DNA of 64,000 nt from Pseudomonas putida. GTDB taxonomy: Bacteria; Pseudomonadota; Gammaproteobacteria; Pseudomonadales; Pseudomonadaceae. Shown here in pieces: positions 305 through 17,971 of this stretch. Both the position numbers and the translations under genes were made by a program. Position 1 is the stretch's first letter; each line of letters opens with the position of its first letter. The stretch spans positions 5,164,001 through 5,228,000 of the forward strand of contig CP163498.1 of assembly GCA_041071465.1 (NCBI GenBank). The letters are read 5' to 3'. The notes beneath the pieces are model-generated. The model saw only the letters and a program-made list of their open reading frames with translations, ran no database searches and had not been told where the DNA came from.

Positions 305-2071
305 TTACCACCTGCTAAATCGCGCCAAACCCTCTAGGAATTTCTGGAGGTAGCTCTCACTGCCAAACGCAAAGCCGGCAGCAAGCAACGGCGCGCTGAA
401 CTCTGGCGTAGAGTACTCCTGACTAAAGCGAGAGATCGTCTCCGAGTGCCAAGATAGACGCCCCATCGCGATGTTTCGGAATTGATTCTGCTGGATTCGA
501 TTATTCAGCTCTTCTTCGTTAACCCCGTTCGCTTGAACGAAGTACAGCAGGTTCAGAAACTCAAAGCGCTCGTACAGCAGCTCGGGATTCTGCACGCCAG
601 CGAACGATGGCGCCCATTTACAGCTGATGTGGCTGGCAAGTCGATTGGATAGCGGCGTGCGGGCATTGCTTTGACCCTCAAGGGTTTTCCAGTGCGTCAG
701 TAGCCCATTGCCGGCCTCCAGATAGAACGGAGACAGTTCATAACCCACCAGGCTTGGCTGCTCACGATGGTTAATCACGGTTGAGCTGAGCAGGCGAAAA
801 AGAACGTCTAGGCGATTAGCACGGGTCAACCCGAGTGCATAGCCGAGTACGATCAACATTACCGGATAGTCCTTCAGTGCTAGCCAATGGGTATAGCCTG
901 ACTGTTCTCTGTGCGCTTCGGCATACAATCCTTTGACTGCATCCAGTACGAGACTGAGCTCTTCTCCCGTTCCCCAGCGGCCTAACACCGAAGCAATGCG
1001 TGCGATCGGTTCGACAGTGGCCTCGTACTCCGGAACCCAGTCACTGAACGCCTGATTTCTCACGTCACCCCCTCCTGCGAAAAGAGGGGCGAAATCAGAA
1101 ATCGTCTGCCGAGTTTGGGCCGTTACCAAGTCGTCGAGCTGGATCCTATGCTCAGGGCGATCCATGAATCGTTTTGTCATGGTAATCATGAGCTCGACGC
1201 TTGCCGGGTTGGGCTGGCGGGATTGCCCAATGGTCTCAAGCTTCAGTGCAAGTGCTTCGAAGAACGTATCTGCGTCAGTGCCACTGACCACCGATGCGCG
1301 GCGCTGTGTGACCAACTCCTGGCCGCGCTCAGATAGACCTCCTCGAGCGAGCCAGTAGGTTGGATAGCGGCGGGAAGGCGCGCGAAGAAACGCGGCCCTC
1401 AGGGCATGATCCCATTCCCCTGACCAGCCGGCGACGATCAGACCGAACTCATCGATGATGCGGTCGAGCAAGATGTTGAACTCGGCAGGGTAGTCACCCA
1501 GTTCAACATCCGTATTCAGAATTCTGGCGTCCTTGTAGTCGCCATGAAGCTTGAGAATAAAGCACTGGGAATGGGTGATCGGTTCGGCCCCTGCCAAAGT
1601 GTCGACTGAACTCACTATCGTGGGCTCAATGCCGGCATCACGCAGTGCATTCTCCATCAGCCTGTCGAAGTTGGTCGTGACGATGACACGCACGTGCCCA
1701 GCGCGCACCATTTCTGCGATAGCTCGATGCGCCCGGGTAGGTACCTTTAACCCGTCTTCCAGCTCTTGGGCTGTCGGCTCCAGGAAACCTTGGACAATAG
1801 CTCTGCGTTCGCTTTGCGTCCCAGCCAAGGTCTCAAGCAGTGTCGAATAGTTTGGCTGCTCTCCTGTCTGACCTACATACCAAGCATGCCAGTCTTCCTG
1901 CTCACCTACCCCTGAGGCGATACCGGCGCGTTTGACCAGCTCCATCGTGATCTCCCAGCCGGTCGGAATGCCGGCGGAGCGTGACACCCCTGACCCCAGG
2001 AGTAGTGCGTACACGCCTTTGTTCTCGTATGCCGAGAAGGCAAGCTGGGTAGTAGGGTCATTGGCGATCAT
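305..2071 (-). CDS. SIR2-domain protein, probable defence NADase
   Basis: A 588-residue protein whose N-terminal half is a SIR2-like NAD-binding domain. Visible motifs are GSGVSRSAGIP (residues 26-36), TTNFDR (132-137), KLHGDY with the candidate catalytic His (174-179) and GWSGEWD (215-221). It has no zinc-binding Cys4 knuckle, which sets it apart from the deacylase at 5992-6741 and places it with SIR2_2-type domains. In described phage-defence proteins (Thoeris ThsA, DSR, SIR2-pAgo) such domains degrade NAD. The C-terminal 350 residues are helical and unrecognised and may sense infection. I chose ATG 2071 over the ATG at 2158 because AGGAAG lies about ten bases upstream and the SIR2 domain begins directly after it. 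The NADase role is inferred from family and context. Confidence 0.75.
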   Translation of the reverse strand: MIANDPTTQLAFSAYENKGVYALLLGSGVSRSAGIPTGWEITMELVKRAGIASGVGEQEDWHAWYVGQTGEQPNYSTLLETLAGTQSERRAIVQGFLEPTAQELEDGLKVPTRAHRAIAEMVRAGHVRVIVTTNFDRLMENALRDAGIEPTIVSSVDTLAGAEPITHSQCFILKLHGDYKDARILNTDVELGDYPAEFNILLDRIIDEFGLIVAGWSGEWDHALRAAFLRAPSRRYPTYWLARGGLSERGQELVTQRRASVVSGTDADTFFEALALKLETIGQSRQPNPASVELMITMTKRFMDRPEHRIQLDDLVTAQTRQTISDFAPLFAGGGDVRNQAFSDWVPEYEATVEPIARIASVLGRWGTGEELSLVLDAVKGLYAEAHREQSGYTHWLALKDYPVMLIVLGYALGLTRANRLDVLFRLLSSTVINHREQPSLVGYELSPFYLEAGNGLLTHWKTLEGQSNARTPLSNRLASHISCKWAPSFAGVQNPELLYERFEFLNLLYFVQANGVNEEELNNRIQQNQFRNIAMGRLSWHSETISRFSQEYSTPEFSAPLLAAGFAFGSESYLQKFLEGLARFSRW

Positions 2072-2300
2072 GGGATGGGATCTTCCTTGCGTTCTGGGGG
2101 CGATTGCCAAAATCATGAAGTCGCCAGCGTTATCCTCGATGGACTGTATTCTAGCCAAAGGCCATCACCGACGCAGCCATTGGTGCGCAGAGTGATTGCC
2201 CAATTGCCATCGCATTGATAGGCAGGTATTAAGGCACATTGAGGAGTCGCAATCGAAGACAACTTGCTTAAGCCGTTGTCCTGGTCTGACTGATACGATG

Positions 2301-3602: not shown

Positions 3603-4649
3603 ATGAAGGTATTTGTTAGCTCGGTCGTCAGTGGTTTTGAGCAGTACCGAGCTGCGGCCCGGAAGGCCATCACGCTTCTGGGGCACACGCCAGTAATGTG
3701 CGAAGACTTCGGAGCGCGCCCGTACTCTTCACAGCATGCGTGCATGACTGAGGTCGACCAGGCAGATGTCGTAGTGCTGATCCTAGGTGCCAATTTCGGC
3801 TATCAGACGGAGACAGGGGAATCCGTCACTCAGCAGGAGTTCCGGCGTGCGAAGGCCTCAGGCAAACCCATCCTGGCCTTCCTCGAAACTGTGGAGATGG
3901 AGGAACGCCAGAAAGCATTCTCCTGGGAGGTATCGGACTACCTTGATGGTCTGTTCCGGGTGACGTTCTCCGATCAGTCAGAGCTGTATGACGGCATCAT
4001 CCAAGGCCTCAACCAGCTTTCTGTAAATCGTAAGGCCATTACTGAACAGGAGTTCGTGCAGCGTCTGCAGCTGCGCAATGGCAATGGGCGCTGGGGTGGG
4101 TACGACCACGAAGCTCGCTTGGAGGTGGCTTTCCTTCCGCAACCCGAAACTCTGGGCACACTGCGCCTCGCACATACTCAGCATGAAGCTTTCTTTCTCA
4201 AGCTCTGCCAGGCCGGGCTGGGTTCAATAAAAGGCGGCTACAAGGATTTCGACTCTGCTGATCAGACCGGGATTGATACCGCAGACCTGAAGTGGCGGCA
4301 TCATGAGAGTGGGCTGAGTTGGTTGACGGTAACTCTCGCTAACACCTCCAGTTCGCGAAACATCATGGACTCCTTCTACCTTTCGCCCTCCAAGGTCAGG
4401 CAGGGGGCGGAGGCTGCGTTCAGCTTGTTGAGTGAAGAGAAGAGTGGGTGGTTCCAGATTGGCCTCTATGGCGTTGGCCACAAGCTATTTGCGGAGCCTC
4501 CAGCAACCCCAGCCAACAGCATCTCGACACCGTTCCGCTCAACCGAAAGCCTGGAGGAGCGAAGCCTCCTAATTCCCGCTACACCGGCTGCATACCGACA
4601 CTGGCTGGACGAAGTGATGTTCCGCTTTGAGCGCAAAATGTCCATGTGA
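3603..4649 (+). CDS. DUF4062 domain protein
   Basis: A 348-residue protein opening with a DUF4062 domain (about residues 1-95): MKVFVSSVVSGFEQYR, then EDFGARPYSSQHACMTEV, then ADVVVLILGANFGYQT, then SVTQQEFRRAKASGKPILAFL. DUF4062 has a TIR/nucleoside-deoxyribosyltransferase-like fold and is common at the N-terminus of conflict and STAND proteins. Here it is joined to about 250 residues I do not recognise rather than to an NTPase. GGGGGATC upstream of ATG 3603 is a good ribosome binding site. The family and the neighbouring SIR2 and helicase genes suggest a defence effector or sensor; no function is proven. Confidence 0.7.
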   Translation: MKVFVSSVVSGFEQYRAAARKAITLLGHTPVMCEDFGARPYSSQHACMTEVDQADVVVLILGANFGYQTETGESVTQQEFRRAKASGKPILAFLETVEMEERQKAFSWEVSDYLDGLFRVTFSDQSELYDGIIQGLNQLSVNRKAITEQEFVQRLQLRNGNGRWGGYDHEARLEVAFLPQPETLGTLRLAHTQHEAFFLKLCQAGLGSIKGGYKDFDSADQTGIDTADLKWRHHESGLSWLTVTLANTSSSRNIMDSFYLSPSKVRQGAEAAFSLLSEEKSGWFQIGLYGVGHKLFAEPPATPANSISTPFRSTESLEERSLLIPATPAAYRHWLDEVMFRFERKMSM

Positions 4650-5991: not shown

Positions 5992-6741
5992 TCAGCTGAA
6001 GGCGTCGCTGATCAACGTCCTCATGACGGAAGCCGGCGCTTGGAGGAAATGTTCCTGGTCACTGATTTCAAAACGCACAGGATTGATGTGCACGACTGAC
6101 GCCCCCGTACTCAAGGCCCGAAGCGGCAGCTCTGCTGCCGGGAATACGTTGCCGGAGGTACCAATCGAAAAGAACAGGTCGCAATCCTCTGCCGCTTCAA
6201 GACCAGCGCGCCACGCGGCTTCTGGAAGCATCTCGCCAAACCAAACGACGCCCGGCCTGATGTGCCCGTTGCATGAATGACACCGCGGTGGTTCGACGCG
6301 GCAGCCATCCTCGGACATTTGATCGCAGGCGAGTAACGCTTCGTGCGCAATGCCACAGTCGATACACCGAGGCGAATGAAGGCTACCGTGCAGGTGGATG
6401 ACTCCCTGGCTCCCAGCCCGCTCATGCAGATCATCTACGTTCTGCGTCACCACCGTCAGCTTTTGCACATGCTGGGCGAGCTCTGCAATAGCAAGGTGCG
6501 CATCATTCGGCTGCGCCTGGAGAACCATGCACCTGCGCCACTCGTACCATCCCCAGCAGAGACTTGGATCGGCTCGATAGGCTGCGGCGGTCGCCAGTTG
6601 GGCAGGGTCGAACCGCCCCCACAAGCCTGTCAGCGCATCACGAAAGGTGGGAATACCGCTTTCTGCCGAAACGCCAGCGCCGGTGAAAACAACGACGCGC
6701 TTGGCTTCTCGCAAACGCTGAGCGATAGCATTGATTGCCAT
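5992..6741 (-). CDS. cobB: Class III NAD-dependent protein deacylase (CobB/SIRT5 type)
   Basis: A full-length sirtuin of 249 residues. The NAD-binding signature GAGVSAESGIPTFRD spans 21-35, QNVDDLH lies at 100-106, the catalytic His is 118 in HLHGS, and two Cys pairs (126/129 and 154/157) form the zinc knuckle. The Tyr66-x-x-Arg69 pair is the marker of the SIRT5/CobB group that removes succinyl and malonyl groups from lysine as well as acetyl. The enzyme transfers the acyl group to NAD, giving nicotinamide and O-acyl-ADP-ribose. It sits alone inside the accessory region with nothing resembling an operon, so it may be an acquired extra copy. The symbol reflects family and not a demonstrated orthologue. 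Confidence 0.85.
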   Translation of the reverse strand: MAINAIAQRLREAKRVVVFTGAGVSAESGIPTFRDALTGLWGRFDPAQLATAAAYRADPSLCWGWYEWRRCMVLQAQPNDAHLAIAELAQHVQKLTVVTQNVDDLHERAGSQGVIHLHGSLHSPRCIDCGIAHEALLACDQMSEDGCRVEPPRCHSCNGHIRPGVVWFGEMLPEAAWRAGLEAAEDCDLFFSIGTSGNVFPAAELPLRALSTGASVVHINPVRFEISDQEHFLQAPASVMRTLISDAFS

Positions 6742-6965: not shown

Positions 6966-9900
6966 ATGAACTGCAGGGACGGTCGCATCAGTTCAGCGCT
7001 CAGCCACGAAATCAACTCGCACCGGGCTCGACTGGCTCCGTTCTTCAACGGCAACGCCAAACCTAACCCGTCAGTTAGCTTTGCCAATGATGGGACTGGC
7101 TTTGGCAAGTCCTATAACGTCTTTGACCAGTTCGTCGAAAACTCCGCTGTTCGTAACGAAAGCGGGGGCCACCGCAACCTATTCTTCATCACCCCGCATA
7201 AAGCACAGATCGACGTTTCCAAGGTCACTCAGGAAAGGGCGGCAGCGCGGGGTGTCAGCATTCTGAGCTTCCTGGCCGAGCGGGACTTGTCTGACCTCAA
7301 TTTCGTCGGTTGGGTGACCAAGGTACGTAATGAAGACCTTTACGGCGGCTGGATCAGAGCCCTTAGTACCGACTACTACCGCGAAGCGGTCAGCGAACTG
7401 AGCAGCGCCATCAGCGGGCTGAAAGCCACTGAGTCCGAGCACCTGCGCTACCTGAAGTTAGGCGTGATGGATCATCTTCGGGACATTGAGCTGCGGCGTC
7501 GAATCGACGCGTCGAAGCAACGCCTGCTCTTTGCGTTGCAGGATCTGGCCAAAGCCGTGATCAGGGAGAAAGTCGGTTCTCAGTTCGTGACCACCGAAGA
7601 CCGCTTCAGGGATGCTCGAACTGACCGTGAACGCGCGAAGATCGAAGTGATTGATCATGTCCTGCCGTTCGAGTGGGCCAAGGTGGGGCCAACCATATTC
7701 ATCGCTACCACTGCGCGATTCCTCAAGCGCGCGTTCATCGTGTACATCGACAAGAAGAAAGAACCAAACATCAAGAAGCTGAGCTTCGACGCCATACTGG
7801 GAGCCAAGCGTTCGCCCACGAATGCTGAGGAAGACAACATCGCGCCTATCGGCGCCGCCTGTAGCCTGTCCCATGACGAGCAAATCGCCTACCTCAAAGA
7901 CGACTTCTTTATTTCCGACGAGGCAAATTTCTTCAAGGCCCACGGAATCACCTTTAACCTCGTCATCGACGAGGAACATGACAGTTACGACCGAATTTTC
8001 GAGGAGAGCAAGAAAAAGCTGGTCAGCGAGCGGGTGAAGCGCCCCACGTCATTGCTGGCCTGCACCGGCTGATGGAGATGGTCTCGGAGAAGTATGGCCC
8101 CGATAATGAGGAACCTATCGCGTTCAACGAAACGGTTGAGCTCATGCAGGATCTTCGTCGGCATTACGAAGAGGACTGCCAAACCAGCGTCTCGTTGGAT
8201 GCCATCCTGATGATGTGCTCGGGCAACGTGGGTCACATCACGATCAACAATCGTGATGTCGAACAAATCCTGGCGCTGTCTCGGAATATCTTCAGCCTCA
8301 CCCCGAGGCGCTTCTACAACGAGGAAGCACTCAAGCGAATCAGGATGCGGTCTGTGTGCGGTAAAAGTGAGATCCGTCTGTATTTCGATGATGGAAGCCC
8401 CACTGACGATCCCGACCCCACACTGCACGACTTTCTGCAGGTCATGCTGTGCGCTCTGTACGCCTGCTCCAAAGTGCCCCAGAAAAGCCCACTGCGACAG
8501 CTGTTGGAGCTTGGCCAGGAGGCCAGCCAGAACGCACCGTTGCTGGAGTTCATCAAAACTTCCCGGCAGCATCACGCCTACGTAGCCTCGGTGTTTGACC
8601 GCGCCAGGGACGCTGAAATCTTCGTAGATGCCTTCTTCACTTTCTTCGCCCCGAAAATTGTCTTTTCGCTGATCAAAGTGGACGAAATCCCCTTTGGCGG
8701 TGATGCGGTGAAGAATCGGGTCTTCGTCGATTTCCACCTTGACCTGATCCTTGAGCTTCCTGAAGTGAAGCTGCTTCGTATCCTGCATGGCACCCAGAAC
8801 AGCGCGATGTGCCTCAGCGCTACGACAGGTTTCAAGAATTCTTACTCGGGCAATTTTTCGAGAAAGATGCTGGTTCGCTATGGTGAGACCCAACCATCGA
8901 ATCTAGATGTACGCGTCGTTGAGCGCTCCCTCGCGGATGTAGATGCGATGGCAGACCTTCGGGCGGCCCGGGCCAAGGCCAGGACGATGGAAGTCAGGCC
9001 TTTCTACAAAACATCGGCTGACGACATTAGCGGGCTGCGCAGCGAGCCTGCCTTCAAAAGCGCTTTCAGCTTCTGGTCAAACTCCCTGATGCCGCCAGGC
9101 TTTCGTGACAACAAGTTCCGGATGTCTGCTTACCGCCGGCAGATCGAGGCGATGCTGATGGCCGCCTGGGATGGCAAGAACACCTTCGTGCTCTCGCTCA
9201 ACAACCGCTTTGCCGATCTGTTCAAAAAGCTGTTCGCGCAGGGCATCGAGGGCCGCATTAAGGGGCTTTCGACGCAGTACCAGGACAAAATCTTCGAGCT
9301 GAAACCCTTCGTGGGTGGAACCAAGATTCGGGTCATCCTGTTCAGCGCCCAGCTGGCCAGAGAGGTCAATATCGATGAATACCTGAAGGTGGATTCTGAC
9401 ACGCGGATATGCCTGGTCTCGTCCTACGGCAGCGCTGGCACGGGTCTCAACCTTTTCGTTGAGCGCGCCGAGGATGGCCTCCACCAGGACTTCGATCGCC
9501 TTGTGCTGGTTAACACGCCGTTCTATAGCTCCATCCGCGAAAAGGATACTGGCCTCAATACCGTCAAGAACCACATTCTGCTTCTCAAGCACATCGCGTC
9601 TGGGGGGAGCGAGGCGGTTCGGTTGTCGCAGTTCGACTCCAATCTGATGCAGCCCAAGAACCGCCGCATCCTGAATCAAGAGCATGATCTGGCGGTGCTC
9701 AAAGCCATCATCCAGGCGGTGGGGCGTGTCGAGCGACGTGATACCCACCTGCACAGCGAAATTTTCCTGCCCAGTGATGTGATCAACGATCTGGTGGTGC
9801 GGTACAGCCGACTACGCCGTGAGGGCAATGATCTGCTCATCAACAGCCTTTCGCTGCTCAATCACAAGCTTATGCAGTTCTGCCTGTCTCAAGCAGAGGG

Positions 9901-10888
9901 TCGCTGCTTTGGTACCGAGGAAGAGCGAGAGCAGTTCACTGCTCAGGTGGCTGCCGACGCTGACGACATTGATAGGTTCTTCAACGGCGCTTTTCGCAGC
10001 AAGATCCTCAGAAGCGCACGCGAAGGTGACCGGGAAGCGATGGCGTTTAACGAGATGCTTAGATCTCCCGAGAGCATCACAGCACCAGAGAAGTACGTGC
10101 GCAGGCTTCTGGCCTCGCCACTCGTAAAAGCCTCCGGCTACTACCAGGAAATCATCAACGCCTTCTACTTGCCGCGGGCTGTGACGGATCGGGTCACCAT
10201 CTGCACGACCATCGAGAGCCACAACCACCTGAGTGACCTACTGCATGGGCAGGCTGTGTATCAGCCTGGGAAGTGGCTTGTTCCAGACTACGTCCGCAAC
10301 GATGGCGATGACCGGGAATCAGGTACTGGCATCATCAACATGGCCTGCAACATGGCCAGCGAAGGGATTGATGTCCACTTGCCCAATCCGGCGCTGATAC
10401 CGCTACTGAAGGGCAACGTTGGCGAGTTCATTTTCGCCCGAGTGCTCGCGGTGCTAGAGATCACTCCACTTGACCTCAACCAGTTCATCGACTGCCTGGG
10501 GCCCGCAGTGTATGAGAGCTATGACATCTTCGTTCGGGTGCAAGACACGCTCATCTGCATCGACGTCAAGCGTTGGTCGGGCAGCCTGGATAGCCACGAG
10601 CTCTCGCTCAAAACGCTTCGCAGAGCAGAAGCCAAACGCAAGGATATGAGTGAGTTGTGCGCTGGCCTGAACCTCACGCCGCGCTTCCTGTACGTCAACA
10701 CGCAACCAGACGACAACGATCTAAACGCTGAACGTGAGTTCACCCATGGAGAGTCGATCCACTTTCTGAATGCCTTCAAGATCATGACCCGTTACGTGCC
10801 AGTGACCGAGGCAGGCACCGTTCACCGGGTGGATGACCGTCTGATGATCAACCCCACATTGATACAGCTGCTAAGGAACGCGAAATGA
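6966..10888 (+). pseudogene. SF2 helicase with C-terminal PD-(D/E)XK nuclease, frame broken at 8042-8045
   Basis: Two overlapping frames, 6966-8072 (368 residues) and 8072-10888 (938 residues), make one protein of 1307 residues if one C is added to the CCCC run at 8042-8045. The joined reading VKRPHVIAGLHRLMEM continues a helix across the break. Walker A (GTGFGKSY, residues 43-50) and Walker B (VIDEEHD, about 333-339) are in the first frame. Motif V-like SYGSAGTGLNLF (about residue 450 of the second frame) and motif VI QAVGRVERRD (about 548) are in the second. Near its end, GEF, YESYD and IDVKRW (about 780-830) fit a PD-(D/E)XK nuclease core. The start at 6966 has GAGGTT seven bases upstream. 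The stop and the second ATG overlap as TGATG, so translational coupling of two real proteins is also possible. Expected role: ATP-driven DNA remodelling and cleavage in defence. Confidence 0.7.
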
Positions 10889-12969
10889 CGTCTATCAACC
10901 CTCTGGAAATGGGTGCTGCTGCCAAGGCGCGCACCAACATGCTGAAACTGCCCGGCAACCTTGACGACATCATTGACCGCTTAGCAGTCATTGATGAGGG
11001 TTACGGTCACATTCAGGCGGCTGTGGTTGAGGTCTCCAGGAAGTATGGTGAAGAGTCAGAGGTCTATTACCCGCGGGTCGATGCCACCATCAAGGACTTC
11101 ATCCGTAAATCGCTGGGCGTCCCAGCGTCCACCAAGGTGCACTACAGCAAATTCAGTGGCAGGAAGGGGGTGTTCGGGTTCATCTATCTAAGCACGCATG
11201 CGCCGGCGCCTGGCCATGTCCGCCAAGTGATCAGCGAGCACTCACTCTATCCCTGCTACGTGATCCAAGCACTGGTGGATCTGAAGCTCAAGCTCTCGTA
11301 CCTCAATGACGTCCACCAGCGCTACGCTATAGAACCTGTCGAGTACAACGCGAATTTGTACCTGGGACTTGTTTTCAGCCGTAAGGCCAGAAACGGTAAT
11401 GAGGTGTTCGAGGCTCTGGAGTACGAGCTGTATTTCTCCAAGGAGCAGGAGCTCGTTCTCTCCCTCAAGCGTGCAGTCATGGAGTGCGCTTCGTCTGTGG
11501 AGTCAGCGAGCAGGCCAGTCACCGATTCCGGCATGTTGATGTTCGATTGGAGTGGTAAACGTTACCAGCGCGTACAGTCTCTCAACGCGACCACCAACAG
11601 TGATCGCAAGTACATGGCGTTTGCCACGAACTACTCCGAGGCAAAGGCACTCGACCTTTACCACAACAGCATCAATTACCACCAAACTGACTGCCTGAAC
11701 CGCATCGAGCGACTGCTGAAGCGTGCGGGCATTGAATTCAGTCCTATGGTGTACCAAGCCACCCATCAGGTCAGGACATTCCTGGCAGGATTGCCGACCA
11801 TGTCAAATCCGCTTTGGCTGCTCGATACAGCAAAGGACACAGCGGACAGTGAAGCTTGGCTAAGCACTATCAAGACCCTCGCAGAGAAGTTCGGCGCGTG
11901 CAAGGTACTGAGCGGTGATGGACTGCCATTGCCCACTGAGCTTGCAGTGGGCAACACGAACTACCTGGTCGTCAGCGAGAAGGTCAAAACCTCCGGTAAG
12001 AGCAAGAACGGTTCCAGCATTTCGAAATCGGAAGGGGAGGAGACGCAGGCCTACAACACCTTCTGGCAAGCGCTCAACGATAGCCAACGCAATCCAGGTG
12101 CGCAGTTCGATTACTACACGTCGGTGAAGCTGCATCGCTTCACGACATCCGTCGACACCATCTGCCAGGGTTTCGACGTCGATCTCAAAAAGAAACCTTC
12201 TGATTCAGCTATTGAGAAAAGCCTGCAGGAATTGGCACTGAAGGAATCGATCTTCCGAGACAAGGCCGTGACCATCAGTGGCGCAGCTTTGCCTGACCAT
12301 GCGCTGCAGCTGGTGAGTTGCCGATGTGACCGAAAGGAGAACATCTACATCCAGGTGCTCGACGTGACCGTGAATGGCGAGACCATCAAGATTGAACGCT
12401 CGCGCCGCTTCGATGAGACCTGCGCGGGTGAGTTCAACTACGAGTTCAAGCAGCTGAGCGCGGTGCTCAGAAAAGCAGGTACCAAGGCGTTTGATGCCCT
12501 CTGGGACGGCGCATTCCTGATCCGCGACAAGGAGACGAATACTTGGCTGAACGCTTACAACACCCCCCGGGTACCCCGCATCATCGGCAACACTCTGTTC
12601 GATAACCAGGAGCGGCAGGACGAGGGTACCTCACCGTCCCGCCAGGTCAGTGCTGAAGTGGCGTCTCTGCCTTACTACCTCACGCCAACAAAGCAGAGCC
12701 AGCGGCACAGCGTGTTCATCCAGGACAATGGCCTAGAGGGCGCGTGGTACTTTGTGGCGTCCAACAAAGCCACAAACGGAACCATCGCGAAGCAAAGCTT
12801 GGTGTACAACGTTGTGATTACCGATGAGGTCGGTACCCGTATTCCTGTCCTGAACCACCCACTGGGCGAGCTGTTCTTCTCCAGCTTCACCTACGACATC
12901 GTAAGGCTTCGCGAGGCGGCCAAGACTTCGATTTTCCAGAAGATCGTTGAAGTCTGCTTGCATAACTGA
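10885..12969 (+). CDS. Unrecognised 694-residue protein coupled to helicase-nuclease
   Basis: The ATG overlaps the helicase stop by four bases (ATGA), so the two are cotranslated. The protein is large, soluble and mixed alpha/beta, with no signal, membrane or obvious NTPase motif. Readable segments are a beta-rich N-terminal half (residues 60-230), a YHQTDCLNRIERLLKRAGI helix near 275, a Rossmann-like stretch NPLWLLDTAKDTADSEAW followed by CKVLSGDGLP near 320-350, a low-complexity Lys/Ser linker near 370-390, and a final beta-rich part ending in IFQKIVEVCLHN. Helicase, nuclease and large partner together recall PIWI-RE and other multi-gene defence cassettes, but I cannot place RNase H catalytic residues. 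I make no functional claim beyond partnership with the helicase. Confidence 0.7.
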   Translation: MTSINPLEMGAAAKARTNMLKLPGNLDDIIDRLAVIDEGYGHIQAAVVEVSRKYGEESEVYYPRVDATIKDFIRKSLGVPASTKVHYSKFSGRKGVFGFIYLSTHAPAPGHVRQVISEHSLYPCYVIQALVDLKLKLSYLNDVHQRYAIEPVEYNANLYLGLVFSRKARNGNEVFEALEYELYFSKEQELVLSLKRAVMECASSVESASRPVTDSGMLMFDWSGKRYQRVQSLNATTNSDRKYMAFATNYSEAKALDLYHNSINYHQTDCLNRIERLLKRAGIEFSPMVYQATHQVRTFLAGLPTMSNPLWLLDTAKDTADSEAWLSTIKTLAEKFGACKVLSGDGLPLPTELAVGNTNYLVVSEKVKTSGKSKNGSSISKSEGEETQAYNTFWQALNDSQRNPGAQFDYYTSVKLHRFTTSVDTICQGFDVDLKKKPSDSAIEKSLQELALKESIFRDKAVTISGAALPDHALQLVSCRCDRKENIYIQVLDVTVNGETIKIERSRRFDETCAGEFNYEFKQLSAVLRKAGTKAFDALWDGAFLIRDKETNTWLNAYNTPRVPRIIGNTLFDNQERQDEGTSPSRQVSAEVASLPYYLTPTKQSQRHSVFIQDNGLEGAWYFVASNKATNGTIAKQSLVYNVVITDEVGTRIPVLNHPLGELFFSSFTYDIVRLREAAKTSIFQKIVEVCLHN

Positions 12970-12980
12970 CGCAGCATTAG

Positions 12981-13007
12981 GCCCATCTTTTTTGAGGATG
13001 GGCTTTG
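12981..13007 (+). terminator. Terminator after the helicase/694-residue operon
   Basis: GCCCATC and GATGGGC form a seven-pair stem around a T-rich loop, followed by TTTG. It lies 12 bases after the stop codon at 12969 and ends the rightward operon. Confidence 0.6.
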
Positions 13008-13061: not shown

Positions 13062-15116
13062 CTATTGATAGAAAGCCGCCGACCCATAGAATTCAAGTAG
13101 GGCGTAATTTTCCTCTTTTCCACGAAGCTGGCGGATCAGATCAAACTCCCCTCCGATTTTAGACGCAAGGTCTTCTGCAATCTCTGGTGTAGACTTCCGG
13201 ATCGAATTAATCGCTATTTTATAGGCATCGAAAAACGGGGCTCCAGCCGCTAAGTTGAAGGCGAGGTAGGATCCGAACGCTGCAGCGGGGTATCCCATAA
13301 CGGGCCACAAGTGGGAAATTGTCGCTTGGTCGGCGCTCGCGATGCCTGGCGCTATTCCTATTTTAGGAAGCAGGCCTCGTTCTTCAAAGCGCGCTCCATC
13401 GCAGATGTTAAGAAATGTCAGCCGCCGTTTTTCAAGGACAGGAGCTTTCTCCCATAGATCTTCAAGCGAAACGGATAATTCATGACCGATATGCATCTTC
13501 ATATACTTGGGTGACCAGTGATCAAATTCACCGTGAGATGCTACCCAAATGATATCGTAAACAGGGTCTTGATAAGCTTCGAGGAACCTTTGTTGTGTGG
13601 CTTCGGTGAAGGTTACAACATCAACTGCAGCCCCAGCAGATTCGAAAACGTGCCTGATTACATCCGTTTCCAATTCCTCTGTCAGACTCCCTCCGCCACA
13701 CCAAATTAAAATGCGCTGCGGTTTTCGGTCAGGCTTAGGGATAGATAATGAGGAGGATATCGGCCATGTCTCCCCCCAAACTTTCAGCTGAATTGATTGA
13801 ATTGGGGTGCATTCAGTGTCAATAATTAATTGGCTTGAGGGTTTGGAGTGAAAGGGGAACGGGGTAAAGCAGTACCCGTTGGTAAGAGCTAACTCATAAT
13901 CTTCAGAGCAGCCGTATTTAGGTATTCCTATCCGAGTCGGTATGGTTACACCGGAGTTGTCAGAATAAGCTAGAGTCTTTGCTACACCTAAGAACTCATT
14001 ACTAGCAGGAACCAGTTGTTCTAAAATAGCCTGAGAGTCGCGCTCGATGAATGTGCGTTCTTTGCCAAGGATGGCCAAGTAACCATGCTCACCGAATGGA
14101 ATTGATATGCACAAATCTTCAGCGGAGACATTCATGCCGGGTGTTAGCAACTGGTGCCAAAGCAGTAAGCCTTGTAAGGCTAAGCAGGAGTCGCCGGCGC
14201 TGAGGGCTTTGACAACAAAGGGTTGAATCGAACCGCTTCGGAATGCAGCGTCGCGGAAAAACGTTATTCCATCTAGTTTTGTCTTGTAAAAATTTTGAAC
14301 GCGATCTATTTGACTGAGAAGCGCTGTCGGATCTTCATTTTCACCTCCTGCATAAATGGTCGAAAGTAATTGCAATTTATGCGGCTCAGCAAGTATCTTG
14401 TTGAACTTGTCGAGTGTTGTAATTGCCCATTCATGGGATGTCTTGCTTGAAAAGTTGCCTGCGATGGTGGTCAGGCTATAGAATAGAATAGATCGCGCCT
14501 TTTCAGAGAGGTTGTCTTTCTCAGTGATATCTTCCACGACTGGAATGAACACTTTAGCTAAGTTGGGCGCTTCTTTCGCAGCCCAGCACGCCAAGTGGCT
14601 CCCGAGATATGCTTCATCGGCGAAGATGTGCTCCGCAGGCAAGCTCATAGAGGCTTCAAAAATCATCGTGGCGAAGGGCCAAAATTCATGTGCGATGTTA
14701 TTCATAGCCGTACGCTCGCGAGCGTAGTAAAAGAATGCACCAAAAAATTTTACCATTACTGGTACGAAACCTGGCCAAGTTCTTATCGGCGGTGACGAAC
14801 AAAACTCAAAAACTCTTCCTGTGTGCAAGGTTTTTGTGTGACTTTCATTGGTGTCTTCTGATAGCGCCCACCCAATCCAGCTCCCCATTTCTGTAAGCTC
14901 ATAGACTGCATACGAGTCGTAAAGAGCCTGGGTTGCAAAAATTAATTGATAAAAGTATAACGGTAACTTTTCTTCTGCGGGCGCGTTATTTTGCTGATCG
15001 ATAATTATGGAAATAATTCTTTTGACTTCAGCAGGCGAGGATGAAGCTCGGCACGCGTCACGGAATACCTTGTCAAGGTGGCTATGAAAGTTTTCGATTT
15101 CCTGCTCAAGGTTCAA
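13062..15116 (-). CDS. CHAT-domain (caspase-like) protease with long N-terminal region
   Basis: A 684-residue protein whose last 230 residues form a CHAT peptidase domain. The catalytic dyad is visible as His528 in IIWVASHGEFDHW and Cys572 in LTFLNICDGARFEE, and the family's closing segment (PVMGYPAAAFGSYLAF then GAPFFDAYKIAIN) follows. The first 450 residues are helical, possibly repeat-forming, and unrecognised. CHAT proteases serve as executioners in defence, for example the gasdermin-cleaving proteases and the type III-E CRISPR partner Csx29. No gasdermin-like pore protein or sensor lies next to it, so the N-terminal part may itself sense. The start is TTG 15116, with AAGGA nine bases upstream. 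Base composition is clearly more AT-rich than the neighbours, a sign of separate acquisition. Confidence 0.75.
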   Translation of the reverse strand: MNLEQEIENFHSHLDKVFRDACRASSSPAEVKRIISIIIDQQNNAPAEEKLPLYFYQLIFATQALYDSYAVYELTEMGSWIGWALSEDTNESHTKTLHTGRVFEFCSSPPIRTWPGFVPVMVKFFGAFFYYARERTAMNNIAHEFWPFATMIFEASMSLPAEHIFADEAYLGSHLACWAAKEAPNLAKVFIPVVEDITEKDNLSEKARSILFYSLTTIAGNFSSKTSHEWAITTLDKFNKILAEPHKLQLLSTIYAGGENEDPTALLSQIDRVQNFYKTKLDGITFFRDAAFRSGSIQPFVVKALSAGDSCLALQGLLLWHQLLTPGMNVSAEDLCISIPFGEHGYLAILGKERTFIERDSQAILEQLVPASNEFLGVAKTLAYSDNSGVTIPTRIGIPKYGCSEDYELALTNGYCFTPFPFHSKPSSQLIIDTECTPIQSIQLKVWGETWPISSSLSIPKPDRKPQRILIWCGGGSLTEELETDVIRHVFESAGAAVDVVTFTEATQQRFLEAYQDPVYDIIWVASHGEFDHWSPKYMKMHIGHELSVSLEDLWEKAPVLEKRRLTFLNICDGARFEERGLLPKIGIAPGIASADQATISHLWPVMGYPAAAFGSYLAFNLAAGAPFFDAYKIAINSIRKSTPEIAEDLASKIGGEFDLIRQLRGKEENYALLEFYGSAAFYQ

Positions 15117-15849: not shown

Positions 15850-16800
15850 TCAGGTTTTCTCAAGGACGTCGGTCGATTGGGATTGAGCTGCCAAGCTGCC
15901 GAAGGAGTTACTGGCGTCTACATACTTCAACGCAGATTTCATGTCTCGCCACCCCACATAGGTCATCAAACCTTTGATGTCCCATCCGTTAGCCGACGCC
16001 CACGTTGCAAAGCCTCTTCGCATCGAGTGACTGCTGTACGCCGCGGCTGGAATGCCCGCAGCCTCTAGAATCCGGCGCAGCAGGGGAATCAAGCTACTGG
16101 CCCTGAAGCCACTGTCGGAAAGATTACCCCAGCGATCGAGCTTGCGGAATATCGGCCCGTCCGCGATACCTGCCAGGCTGATCCAGTTGATGTAGGCCTC
16201 GACCGGGCAAAGTTGCTTGAGGGCGGGGGTGTAGAAGGTGCTGCCCTGGTAGTCGCGGTCGGCCTTGGAGTAGGGCAGATAGAAGGTGATGCCAACACCG
16301 GCTTCCGCCTGAGTCGTCTCAACACGGAGTCGCGCCAGTTCATCGCTTCGAAATCCGCGCCAGAAGCCAATTAGCAACAGGGCGGAATCGCGGCGGTACC
16401 GCATCAAGCTCTGGTAATCACCAGCCTCAATGGCCTGTGCGGCTTTAATGTCCAGCCACGCCACCACCTTCTGCAGATGACGCAACTGAAGGGGCGCAGC
16501 TTGCTTCTGCTGTGCAGGGTGAACTGCGCGAATGCCTTTAAGCATCTGCCGCACCTGAGGAGCCTTCGTCGGATCAGGGAAACCCTGGCTAATGTGCCAT
16601 TGTGCCAGCGCAGCAAGCCGTTGCCTGAGCGTGCTAAGAGCGAGGGTTTCAGCATACTCGGCCAAGTAGCGAACGATCCCCTCCGCTGTCGCTGGCAGGT
16701 ACCCACCCCACGTGACTTCGAAGTGCTCGATCGCCGCGCGGTAGCTCTTACGTGTGTTTTCTCGCGTTCCCGCCGTCAGGTACCGCTGAGCCTTGTCCAT
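15850..16800 (-). CDS. Tyrosine recombinase / site-specific integrase
   Basis: A complete 316-residue recombinase. An N-terminal SAM-like core-binding domain (about 1-95) is followed by the catalytic domain with Arg151 (GFRSDEL), His258 and Arg261 (SSHSMRR), Trp284 (VGW) and the nucleophile Tyr293 (LKYVD). All active-site residues are present, so the enzyme is probably active. Its start at 16800 lies 178 bases from the divergent KfrA-like gene, and the pair probably shares a control region. The family integrates or excises mobile islands; I found no tRNA or clear direct-repeat attachment sites in the window. Confidence 0.9.
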   Translation of the reverse strand: MDKAQRYLTAGTRENTRKSYRAAIEHFEVTWGGYLPATAEGIVRYLAEYAETLALSTLRQRLAALAQWHISQGFPDPTKAPQVRQMLKGIRAVHPAQQKQAAPLQLRHLQKVVAWLDIKAAQAIEAGDYQSLMRYRRDSALLLIGFWRGFRSDELARLRVETTQAEAGVGITFYLPYSKADRDYQGSTFYTPALKQLCPVEAYINWISLAGIADGPIFRKLDRWGNLSDSGFRASSLIPLLRRILEAAGIPAAAYSSHSMRRGFATWASANGWDIKGLMTYVGWRDMKSALKYVDASNSFGSLAAQSQSTDVLEKT

Positions 16801-16941
16801 CTCCCGTTCCTGCCATTCATACAGACTAGAGGGCGATTTTCACCCATTTTGCCGCCTAAGAACACATAACTCTCCATTATTTACTCTTGGATTTCGGGGT
16901 ATTTATTGGTCATAAAATCATCTACAATGTCACGTATGAAC

Positions 16942-16955
16942 GTGTTATGTAACAC
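16942..16955. promoter_or_regulatory. Palindromic operator before the KfrA-like gene
   Basis: GTGTTATGTAACAC is an inverted repeat (GTGTTA/TAACAC) that ends 23 bases before the ATG at 16979. A near-identical 14-mer ends exactly 23 bases before the paralogue that starts at 63575. KfrA proteins repress their own promoters, so this is a probable autoregulatory site; it also lies between the divergent integrase and KfrA-like genes. A possible -10 hexamer (TACAAT) is at 16923-16928. Confidence 0.6.
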
Positions 16956-16978
16956 ATTACGAAATCGTAGGAGAGGTC

Positions 16979-17971
16979 ATGGCTCGCGGCGGCATTAACA
17001 AGGCTTTGGTGCAGAAGGCACGCGCGGCGCTGATCGCCCGCGGCGTCAATCCAAGCATTGACGCGGTGCGAATCGAGCTAGGAAATACGGGATCCAAGAC
17101 CACAATTTCGCGGTATATGCAGGAGTTGGAGTCGGCAGACGTGCGCCCGCAGGCCCATCCGGATCGACTGAGTGATGAGCTGACAGCGATGGTCGGCCAG
17201 CTTTTGAAGCGTGTTTTGGAGGAGGGCAACGAAGCCCTGGCGCAGGAGCGAGTCAGCCACGAGCAGAGCGTCGCAGCCCTGAGTCAGCGCATCAGCGACC
17301 TAGATGCAGAACTCAAAAACAGCAAACAAATCACCGCGAGCCGTGATGCGGCATTGATCGCCCAAGCCGAAGAGCTGCGAACATGCCAATCCTCTTTGCA
17401 GGCCGAGATAACCCGGAACGCGCGCCTCAGCCAAAGCTGTGCAGACCTGGAACTGCGAATGCAAGAGAAGGATGGGCATGTGCGCTCGCTAGAGGAGAAG
17501 CACACGCATGCCCGGGATGCGCTGGAGCACTACCGCACCGCCATCAAGGAGCAGCGAGAACAAGATCAGCGCCGCCATGAGACCCAGCTTCAGCAAGTCC
17601 AGCAGGAACTCCTGCAACTACAACAGGCCCTGATGGTTCGCCAGGATGAATTGACGCGCCTAAATCGTGACAACGAGCGCCTGCTGAGTGAAGCGCGCCA
17701 GCACAGCAAGCTTGCTCACCAGAATCAGGATTCGATGAAGCGACTAGAGGGGGATCTGGGGCTCGCAAACATGGCCACAGCCAGGGCTGAAGGCGCTAAA
17801 GAGATGCTCCAGGAGCAATTGGTGACCGTGAAAAATACCAACGAGGGGCTCTCGTCTGAAATTTCCTCGCTACGAGCCAATGTCGTGAAACTTAGCCAGG
17901 AGCTGGCTGATACAGCCAAAGCACTGAAGATTTGCCGCGGTGAACAGCCTGATATGACTGGCGAATCATGA
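16979..17971 (+). CDS. KfrA-like DNA-binding coiled-coil protein
   Basis: A 330-residue protein. The first 55 residues form a KfrA-type DNA-binding domain (INKALVQKARAALIARGVNP, then IELGNTGSKTTISRYMQEL). From about residue 70 to the end it is a Glu/Gln/Arg-rich coiled coil, with a KHTHARDALEHYRTAIKEQR segment shared with the gene at 62595-63575. KfrA proteins are plasmid-encoded autorepressors that form filaments; chromosomal copies beside integrases are common in Pseudomonas islands. AGGAG lies seven bases upstream of the ATG. Divergent from the recombinase. Possible roles are control of the integrase or nucleoid-like coating of the island; neither is shown here. Confidence 0.8.
   Translation: MARGGINKALVQKARAALIARGVNPSIDAVRIELGNTGSKTTISRYMQELESADVRPQAHPDRLSDELTAMVGQLLKRVLEEGNEALAQERVSHEQSVAALSQRISDLDAELKNSKQITASRDAALIAQAEELRTCQSSLQAEITRNARLSQSCADLELRMQEKDGHVRSLEEKHTHARDALEHYRTAIKEQREQDQRRHETQLQQVQQELLQLQQALMVRQDELTRLNRDNERLLSEARQHSKLAHQNQDSMKRLEGDLGLANMATARAEGAKEMLQEQLVTVKNTNEGLSSEISSLRANVVKLSQELADTAKALKICRGEQPDMTGES

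What the first reader, a model, noticed from the sequence alone, without database searches (positions are those of the whole stretch)
6966..12969. Helicase-nuclease coupled to an unknown 694-residue protein: candidate undescribed defence cassette
Seen: an SF2-type helicase with Walker A, Walker B and motif VI ends in a PD-(D/E)XK-like core and overlaps by ATGA a large protein with no recognisable domain; a terminator closes the unit. Known: helicase plus nuclease plus partner is the layout of many anti-phage systems, and the surrounding genes (SIR2, DUF4062, CHAT) are defence-type. Inference: the two (or three) genes form one system that I cannot match to any named one.
Basis: partly seen in the sequence, partly recalled or inferred. 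Interest (0 to 1): 0.8.

Follow-up and report, generated by a model that had tools for sequence, protein, structure and literature searches.

The report
Diverged ApsAB antiplasmid system, gene broken
This pair of bacterial genes is a distant Pseudomonas relative of ApsAB, a known system that removes plasmids with a helicase-nuclease and an Argonaute-like guide protein; here the helicase gene is split by a frameshift, so this copy is probably silent.

Summary
The cassette is real, but it is neither undescribed nor led by one intact helicase gene. The helicase lies in two reading frames (6966-8072 and 8072-10888). All 59 homologues found for the larger piece are longer proteins (1109-1595 aa), the nearest, 97% identical, being one protein of 1307 aa; so the gene is frameshift-split here.

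The pair matches ApsAB, a published antiplasmid system of E. coli (PMC11096173). An E. coli copy with every ApsA and ApsB residue number that I saw printed there aligns with the window's proteins nearly end to end (28% and 32.5% for the two helicase pieces, 24% for the 694-aa protein).

In 29 of 29 relatives the genes are adjacent, in some beside Gabija or Shango.

Verdict: new member of a known kind. Modestly new: ApsB looks like a DdmE-type Argonaute, which the ApsAB paper did not conclude.

The parts
6966..8072 (+). apsA-like gene, 5' piece (368 aa): first helicase lobe with Walker A (7092-7112) and DEEH (7968-7979)
   Evidence: 28% identity to E. coli ApsA residues 184-552, E 4e-43
8024..8051 (+). 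stretch in which the reading frame changes; the first frame runs on to its stop at 8070-8072, which overlaps the ATG at 8072-8074 (TGATG)
   Evidence: own-genome match of P0001 in two frames; stop and start letters
8072..10888 (+). apsA-like gene, 3' piece (938 aa): SAT (8816-8824), AGTGLN (9434-9451), QAVGRVERRD (9713-9742), KGNxGE (10409-10426), nuclease D (10523-10525) and DVK (10562-10570)
   Evidence: 32.5% identity to E. coli ApsA residues 579-1557, E 1e-163
10885..12969 (+). apsB-like gene (694 aa), Argonaute-like guide protein; ATGA overlap with the piece before it
12115..12243 (+). MID guide-pocket motif Y411, K415, Q428-G429, K453 of ApsB
   Evidence: 31 of 31 rows; equals the published Y[X]3K[X]nQG[X]nK
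12964..12966 (+). C-terminal Asn 694 of ApsB
   Evidence: last residue in 31 of 31 rows; N743 in ApsB
12981..13003 (.). small hairpin after apsB, doubtful terminator
   Evidence: 7-bp arms, T-run in the loop, TTT after; not called by the scan

Best explanation
The cassette is a diverged apsAB operon of the ApsAB/DdmDE group of plasmid-defence systems, with apsA split by a frameshift in this genome. Proposed working of intact relatives: ApsB, an Argonaute-like protein without a conserved set of PIWI catalytic residues, holds a short guide by its 5' end in the MID pocket and pairs with plasmid DNA; it then recruits ApsA, whose SF2 helicase motor runs along the freed strand while its C-terminal PD-(D/E)XK nuclease cuts, so that the plasmid is lost. 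In this genome the motor is in two pieces, so the system is probably inactive. Shown here: homology, linkage, motifs, fold of ApsB, split frame. Shown by others for E. coli ApsAB: active plasmid loss that is abolished by helicase and guide-pocket mutations and reduced by a nuclease mutation. Inferred: guide use, recruitment, strand choice, and inactivity of this copy.
Against: No activity has been tested for the Pseudomonas branch. It lacks about 173 N-terminal residues that E. coli ApsA has. Sequence profiles of both proteins find no DdmD, DdmE or Argonaute chain in the PDB. Profile comparison of ApsB with two single pAgo sequences is uninformative. The ApsAB paper itself judged ApsB and DdmE structures different and ApsB without a conserved RNase H fold. 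The helicase structure could not be predicted. A sequence error at the split is not excluded.
Confidence: 0.85

Rival explanations
1. The split is real and functional: the two helicase pieces are made through the coupled TGATG stop-start (or by frameshifting) and together form a working motor.
For: Stop and start overlap; both pieces stay 95-97% identical to P0001; apsB is intact.
Against: The helicase is in one frame in 27 of 29 other loci; all 59 protein relatives of the second piece are longer than it; the other two broken copies (L002, L030) are each in three pieces; in the published evolution experiment, frameshifts were among the mutations selected in plasmid carriers.
Confidence: 0.08
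2. An undescribed anti-phage cassette.
For: No PADLOC or NCBIfam model covers it or the relatives tested; defence neighbours in the window.
Against: Match to ApsAB on both proteins; ApsAB had no activity against eight phages.
Confidence: 0.03
3. A divergent pPIWI-RE system (REase, DinG-type helicase and PIWI protein; PMC3702460).
For: Similar parts list (passages); three collinear motif segments between the helicases and a likeness around the nuclease D-x-K-x-W; pPIWI-RE proteins take the top five of 73 places against the ApsB profile.
Against: All these profile matches are at most 2.3% probability and overlap the background; no pPIWI-RE Pfam domain in any of the three ORFs, while a canonical triad shows them; the nuclease is a separate first gene in the triad.
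Confidence: 0.02

Closest known systems
ApsAB antiplasmid system of E. coli ST38 (Zongo et al. 2024, PMC11096173)
   Same: Gene order, ATGA-type overlap, helicase motifs, D-x12-DVK nuclease core, MID motif with QG, C-terminal Asn; alignable nearly end to end
   Different: About 31% (intact relative P0001) and 24% identity; DEEH in place of DELH; no N-terminal extension of about 173 residues; apsA split here
DdmDE plasmid defence of V. cholerae and L. casei
   Same: Helicase-nuclease with an Argonaute-like partner; ApsB model fits DdmE over residues 12-694; same order of domains in DdmD (review passages)
   Different: No detectable sequence similarity to the PDB chains; the ApsAB paper reports that DdmE lacks the MID-like motif
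pPIWI-RE three-gene system (PMC3702460, passages)
   Same: Nuclease, helicase and PIWI-type partner in one operon
   Different: Separate nuclease gene placed first; other Pfam families; no significant profile match
Catalytic long pAgos (e.g. T. thermophilus Argonaute)
   Different: No fully conserved acidic set in the C-terminal half of ApsB; obligate helicase-nuclease partner

Membership tests
ApsAB | Two-gene operon, helicase-nuclease then Argonaute-like protein | tested here: met
   Window ORFs; 29 of 29 other loci
ApsAB | ApsA homology along the protein with SF2 motifs GFGKS, DExH, SAT, QAVGRVER | tested here: met
   residue is DEEH, not DELH
ApsAB | C-terminal PD-(D/E)XK nuclease (D1420, D1433-V-K1435) | tested here: met
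   D818 and D831-V-K833 of the 3' piece; same spacing of 13
ApsAB | ApsB motif Y[X]3K[X]nQG[X]nK and C-terminal Asn | tested here: met
   31 of 31 rows, window included
ApsAB | Both genes intact, as needed for activity in E. coli | tested here: not met
   apsA is in two frames in this genome: a member by descent, probably not a working one
ApsAB | Plasmid destabilisation | not testable with these tools
   needs an experiment
DdmDE | Partner with the DdmE fold | tested here: met
DdmDE | Helicase-nuclease homologous to DdmD | tested here: inconclusive
   No sequence hit to PDB chains; structure job never accepted. [quoted passage not shown]
pPIWI-RE system | pPIWI-RE Pfam domains (PF13032, PF18157, PF13111) in the partner | tested here: not met
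   No hit at E <= 1; a canonical triad is recognised
Catalytic long pAgo | Conserved DEDX tetrad in PIWI | tested here: inconclusive
   In residues 461-694 only D548 (30 of 31), D671 and E677 (29 of 31 each) are conserved acidic residues and none is invariant; active-site geometry was not examined

The most novel reading that the evidence does not exclude
ApsB is a DdmE-type Argonaute with a degenerate PIWI half, so ApsAB and DdmDE are two sequence-diverged branches of one guide-directed plasmid-killing machine. The ApsAB paper instead reported a different 3D structure (RMSD 30.6) and no conserved RNase H fold. In some hosts, this one included, the motor gene is broken while the guide-protein gene is kept, perhaps because carrying a plasmid selects for loss of the motor.
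Probability: 0.6. Interest if true: 0.5.

Novelty: new member of a known kind. Interest (0 to 1): 0.35.

Why it matters
It moves the cassette from 'unknown anti-phage system' to a plasmid-defence class and points to intact Pseudomonas relatives for testing. The DdmE-like fold of ApsB gives a structural reason to treat ApsAB and DdmDE as one mechanism, which can be tested directly. No PADLOC or NCBIfam model caught any of the six ApsA/ApsB relatives tested, so scans with those libraries miss such systems: 147 of 5426 complete E. coli genomes have a match to the E. coli operon, 141 of them over at least 80% of it, and in the 60 rows listed it is annotated as hypothetical proteins.

Tried and rejected
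pPIWI-RE: considered because of the long inserts between helicase motifs, as in DinG-type helicases (recalled layout). Canonical triads were fetched and compared by profile: best probability 2.3%. In one search the top five of 73 scores are pPIWI-RE rows (26.6 to 23.9) against a best background of 23.6; several of these rows look near-identical by their ends, and the other three pPIWI-RE rows rank 8, 17 and 28. Dropped after the ApsAB match.

Classical pAgo by profile: two single sequences, ranks 42 and 48 of 73, uninformative. A motif likeness to the pAgo in L040 was seen by eye.

PDB by sequence profile: no relevant chain for either protein.

Phage and plasmid link: no match in 50,697 phage records; none of 48 pattern matches in viral contigs confirmed; the helicase in 1 plasmid record of 72,556, the partner in 2, one of them over 19% of the query only.

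A protein search with the broad ApsB alignment listed only proteins already found.

Left island edge: not found in the 40 kb left of the window.

Helicase structure: never accepted. Foldseek 'pdb' for the ApsB model: never accepted; only the VIA-align second look ran, which is limited to chains that Foldseek ranked high.

Whether the DdmE-like fold of ApsB is already in print: not seen in the search listings and the passages read; most subscription papers are not held, and supplements of PMC11096173 were not seen, so Pseudomonas relatives may already be in its lists.

Recalled, from no call: residue numbers of human AGO2 and the role of the Argonaute C-terminal carboxylate.

Dropped before counts: the ApsB count of 31 rows comes from 70 sequences, less 3 fragments under 600 aa and 36 near-duplicates. 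Neighbour proteins for searches were 20 chosen by hand from 301 ORFs of 26 loci.

Full report
WHAT IS THERE. Three forward ORFs fill the reported span: 6966-8072 (368 aa), 8072-10888 (938 aa) and 10885-12969 (694 aa). None has a library match above noise: Pfam none at E <= 1, PADLOC best E 0.0012, NCBIfam best E 0.016. The first two are not separate genes in relatives: all 59 homologues of the second ORF are longer than it (1109 to 1595 aa), and the nearest, 97% identical, is a single protein of 1307 aa. A search of the window's own genome with that protein gives two matches in different frames that overlap at window 8024-8051. The helicase gene is therefore split by a frameshift, and the Walker A and DEEH motifs are cut off from SAT, motif V, motif VI and the nuclease. 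The third ORF is intact.

LINKAGE. A scan of species-representative genomes with the helicase alignment gave 28 distinct loci; one E. coli plasmid record was added. In 29 of 29 the homologue of the third ORF follows the helicase directly: 22 overlap by 4 nt, the others by 8 nt (1) or 1 nt (2) or with gaps of 7 nt (3) and 47 nt (1). The helicase is in one frame in 27 of 29; L002 and L030 are broken too, each in three pieces. In the 298 Pseudomonas genomes of each search (own genome included) the helicase was found in 4, one a fragment, and the partner in 4, one in fragments; both are full length in the same two other genomes, and the window's genome has the full partner with the split helicase. 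Two protein trees share the same deep split: of the loci in both, L008 and L009 fall with Pseudomonas, and L012, L016, L024, L025 and L027 with E. coli. Both trees carry long-branch warnings.

IDENTITY. In a 31-row alignment of the 694-aa protein, Y411, K415, Q428, G429 and K453 are kept in 31 of 31 rows, and so is the last residue, N694. This is the pattern of the guide 5'-end pocket of Argonaute MID domains. A literature search on DdmDE and Argonaute led to PMC11096173, of which I saw the abstract and outline, passages and section 9. It describes ApsAB, an antiplasmid system of E. coli ST38: ApsA with GFGKS at 218, DELH at 532, SAT at 823, QAVGRVER at 1140, D1420 and DVK at 1433-1435; ApsB with Y409, K413, Q431, K489 and C-terminal N743. 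The intact E. coli copy L058 has all of these at those numbers, and a record labelled E. coli strain ST38 is 99.9% identical to it. The window's pieces align to it at 28% (ApsA 184-552), 32.5% (579-1557) and 24% (ApsB 7-743) identity with E-values 4e-43, 1e-163 and 1e-49; the intact relative P0001 aligns at 30.9% over 1393 columns. The paper found a 28/25% identical E. coli system still active, so the distance here is like the one tested, though this branch is untested. [quoted passage not shown] its supplementary lists were not seen.

MECHANISM. A review (PMC12409362, passages) gives the DdmDE model: DdmE binds DNA guides, finds the plasmid and recruits the dimeric, autoinhibited DdmD, which loads on the non-target strand, translocates and cuts. 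For ApsAB the paper reports active plasmid elimination after induction, and that it is abolished by helicase mutations (K221A, E533A) and a pocket mutation (K413A) and partly lost with a nuclease mutation (K1435A). I infer the same order of events for intact relatives of the window system. Guide type, guide source and avoidance of self are unknown.

STATE IN THIS GENOME. With apsA in two frames the motor is probably not made. In the published evolution experiment 86 of 138 evolved plasmid-bearing clones had mutations in the two genes, frameshifts among them. Of the 60 E. coli rows listed out of 147 with a match, 10 look interrupted or truncated (insertion elements or extra genes within the match, an extra reading frame, or under 80% covered). 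A sequence error at the split cannot be excluded without reads.

CONTEXT. In the window BovA (Borvo) faces apsB and a SIR2 candidate system (PDC-S65) lies about 5 kb upstream; a tyrosine integrase and a KfrA-like gene follow. A same-species genome has neither gene, and its match to the window begins at about 24420, so the region is accessory. Of 20 hand-picked neighbour proteins of relatives scanned with PADLOC at 1e-10, Gabija proteins appear in L003 (GajB only), L007 and L011, a weaker GajB-type hit in L005, Shango in L004 and L018, a PifA-like protein in L003, a DrmD-like helicase with a type IIG enzyme in L020, and a weak candidate-family hit in L016; 5 of the 20 had no match. This shows occurrence, not enrichment.

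VERDICT. New member of a known kind: a Pseudomonas branch of ApsAB, broken here.

Noticed in passing
window 13062-15116 (-): Full-length match to BovA of Borvo (826 bits), facing apsB.
   Followed up: no
window 305-2158 (-): SIR2-type protein matching the candidate defence family PDC-S65 (704 bits).
   Followed up: no
window 5992-6741 (-): The SIR2 gene next to the cassette scores as an ordinary NAD-dependent deacylase (278.8 bits against a cut-off of 243), not as a defence SIR2.
   Followed up: partly
window 3603-4649 (+); L003:8542-9609 (+): DUF4062 protein upstream of apsA in the window; a protein with a like start (by eye) lies directly upstream of apsA in L003, but no like start was seen in the ORF listings of the other 25 loci.
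   Followed up: no
window 15850-17971; L004:2742-3713: Tyrosine integrase followed by a KfrA_N protein; a protein with a like start occurs near apsA in L004: perhaps a shared island type.
   Followed up: no
window about 24420: Edge of the match with a same-species genome (99% identical to the right of it); nothing left of it matched that genome's adjacent 16 kb.
   Followed up: partly
L002:12001-16707; L030:9443-13913; G855; G1043: Other broken or partial copies: helicase in three pieces in an E. coli plasmid record and in Vibrio maritimus; a helicase fragment alone in one genome and partner fragments alone in another.
   Followed up: partly
L043-L052: Canonical pPIWI-RE triads in 9 of 248 genomes of the same family and 1 of 299 of the phylum; L049 and L050 look broken, and some neighbours resemble the Shango genes of L004 by eye.
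   Followed up: partly
P0028, P0029, P0045 and kin, residues 1 to about 170: Longer ApsA forms begin with a region opening W-[TS]-x-x-[ED] that the Pseudomonas branch lacks; its role is unknown.
   Followed up: no
PMC12904381, passages: That review states the roles of DdmD and DdmE the other way round from PMC12409362.
   Followed up: no
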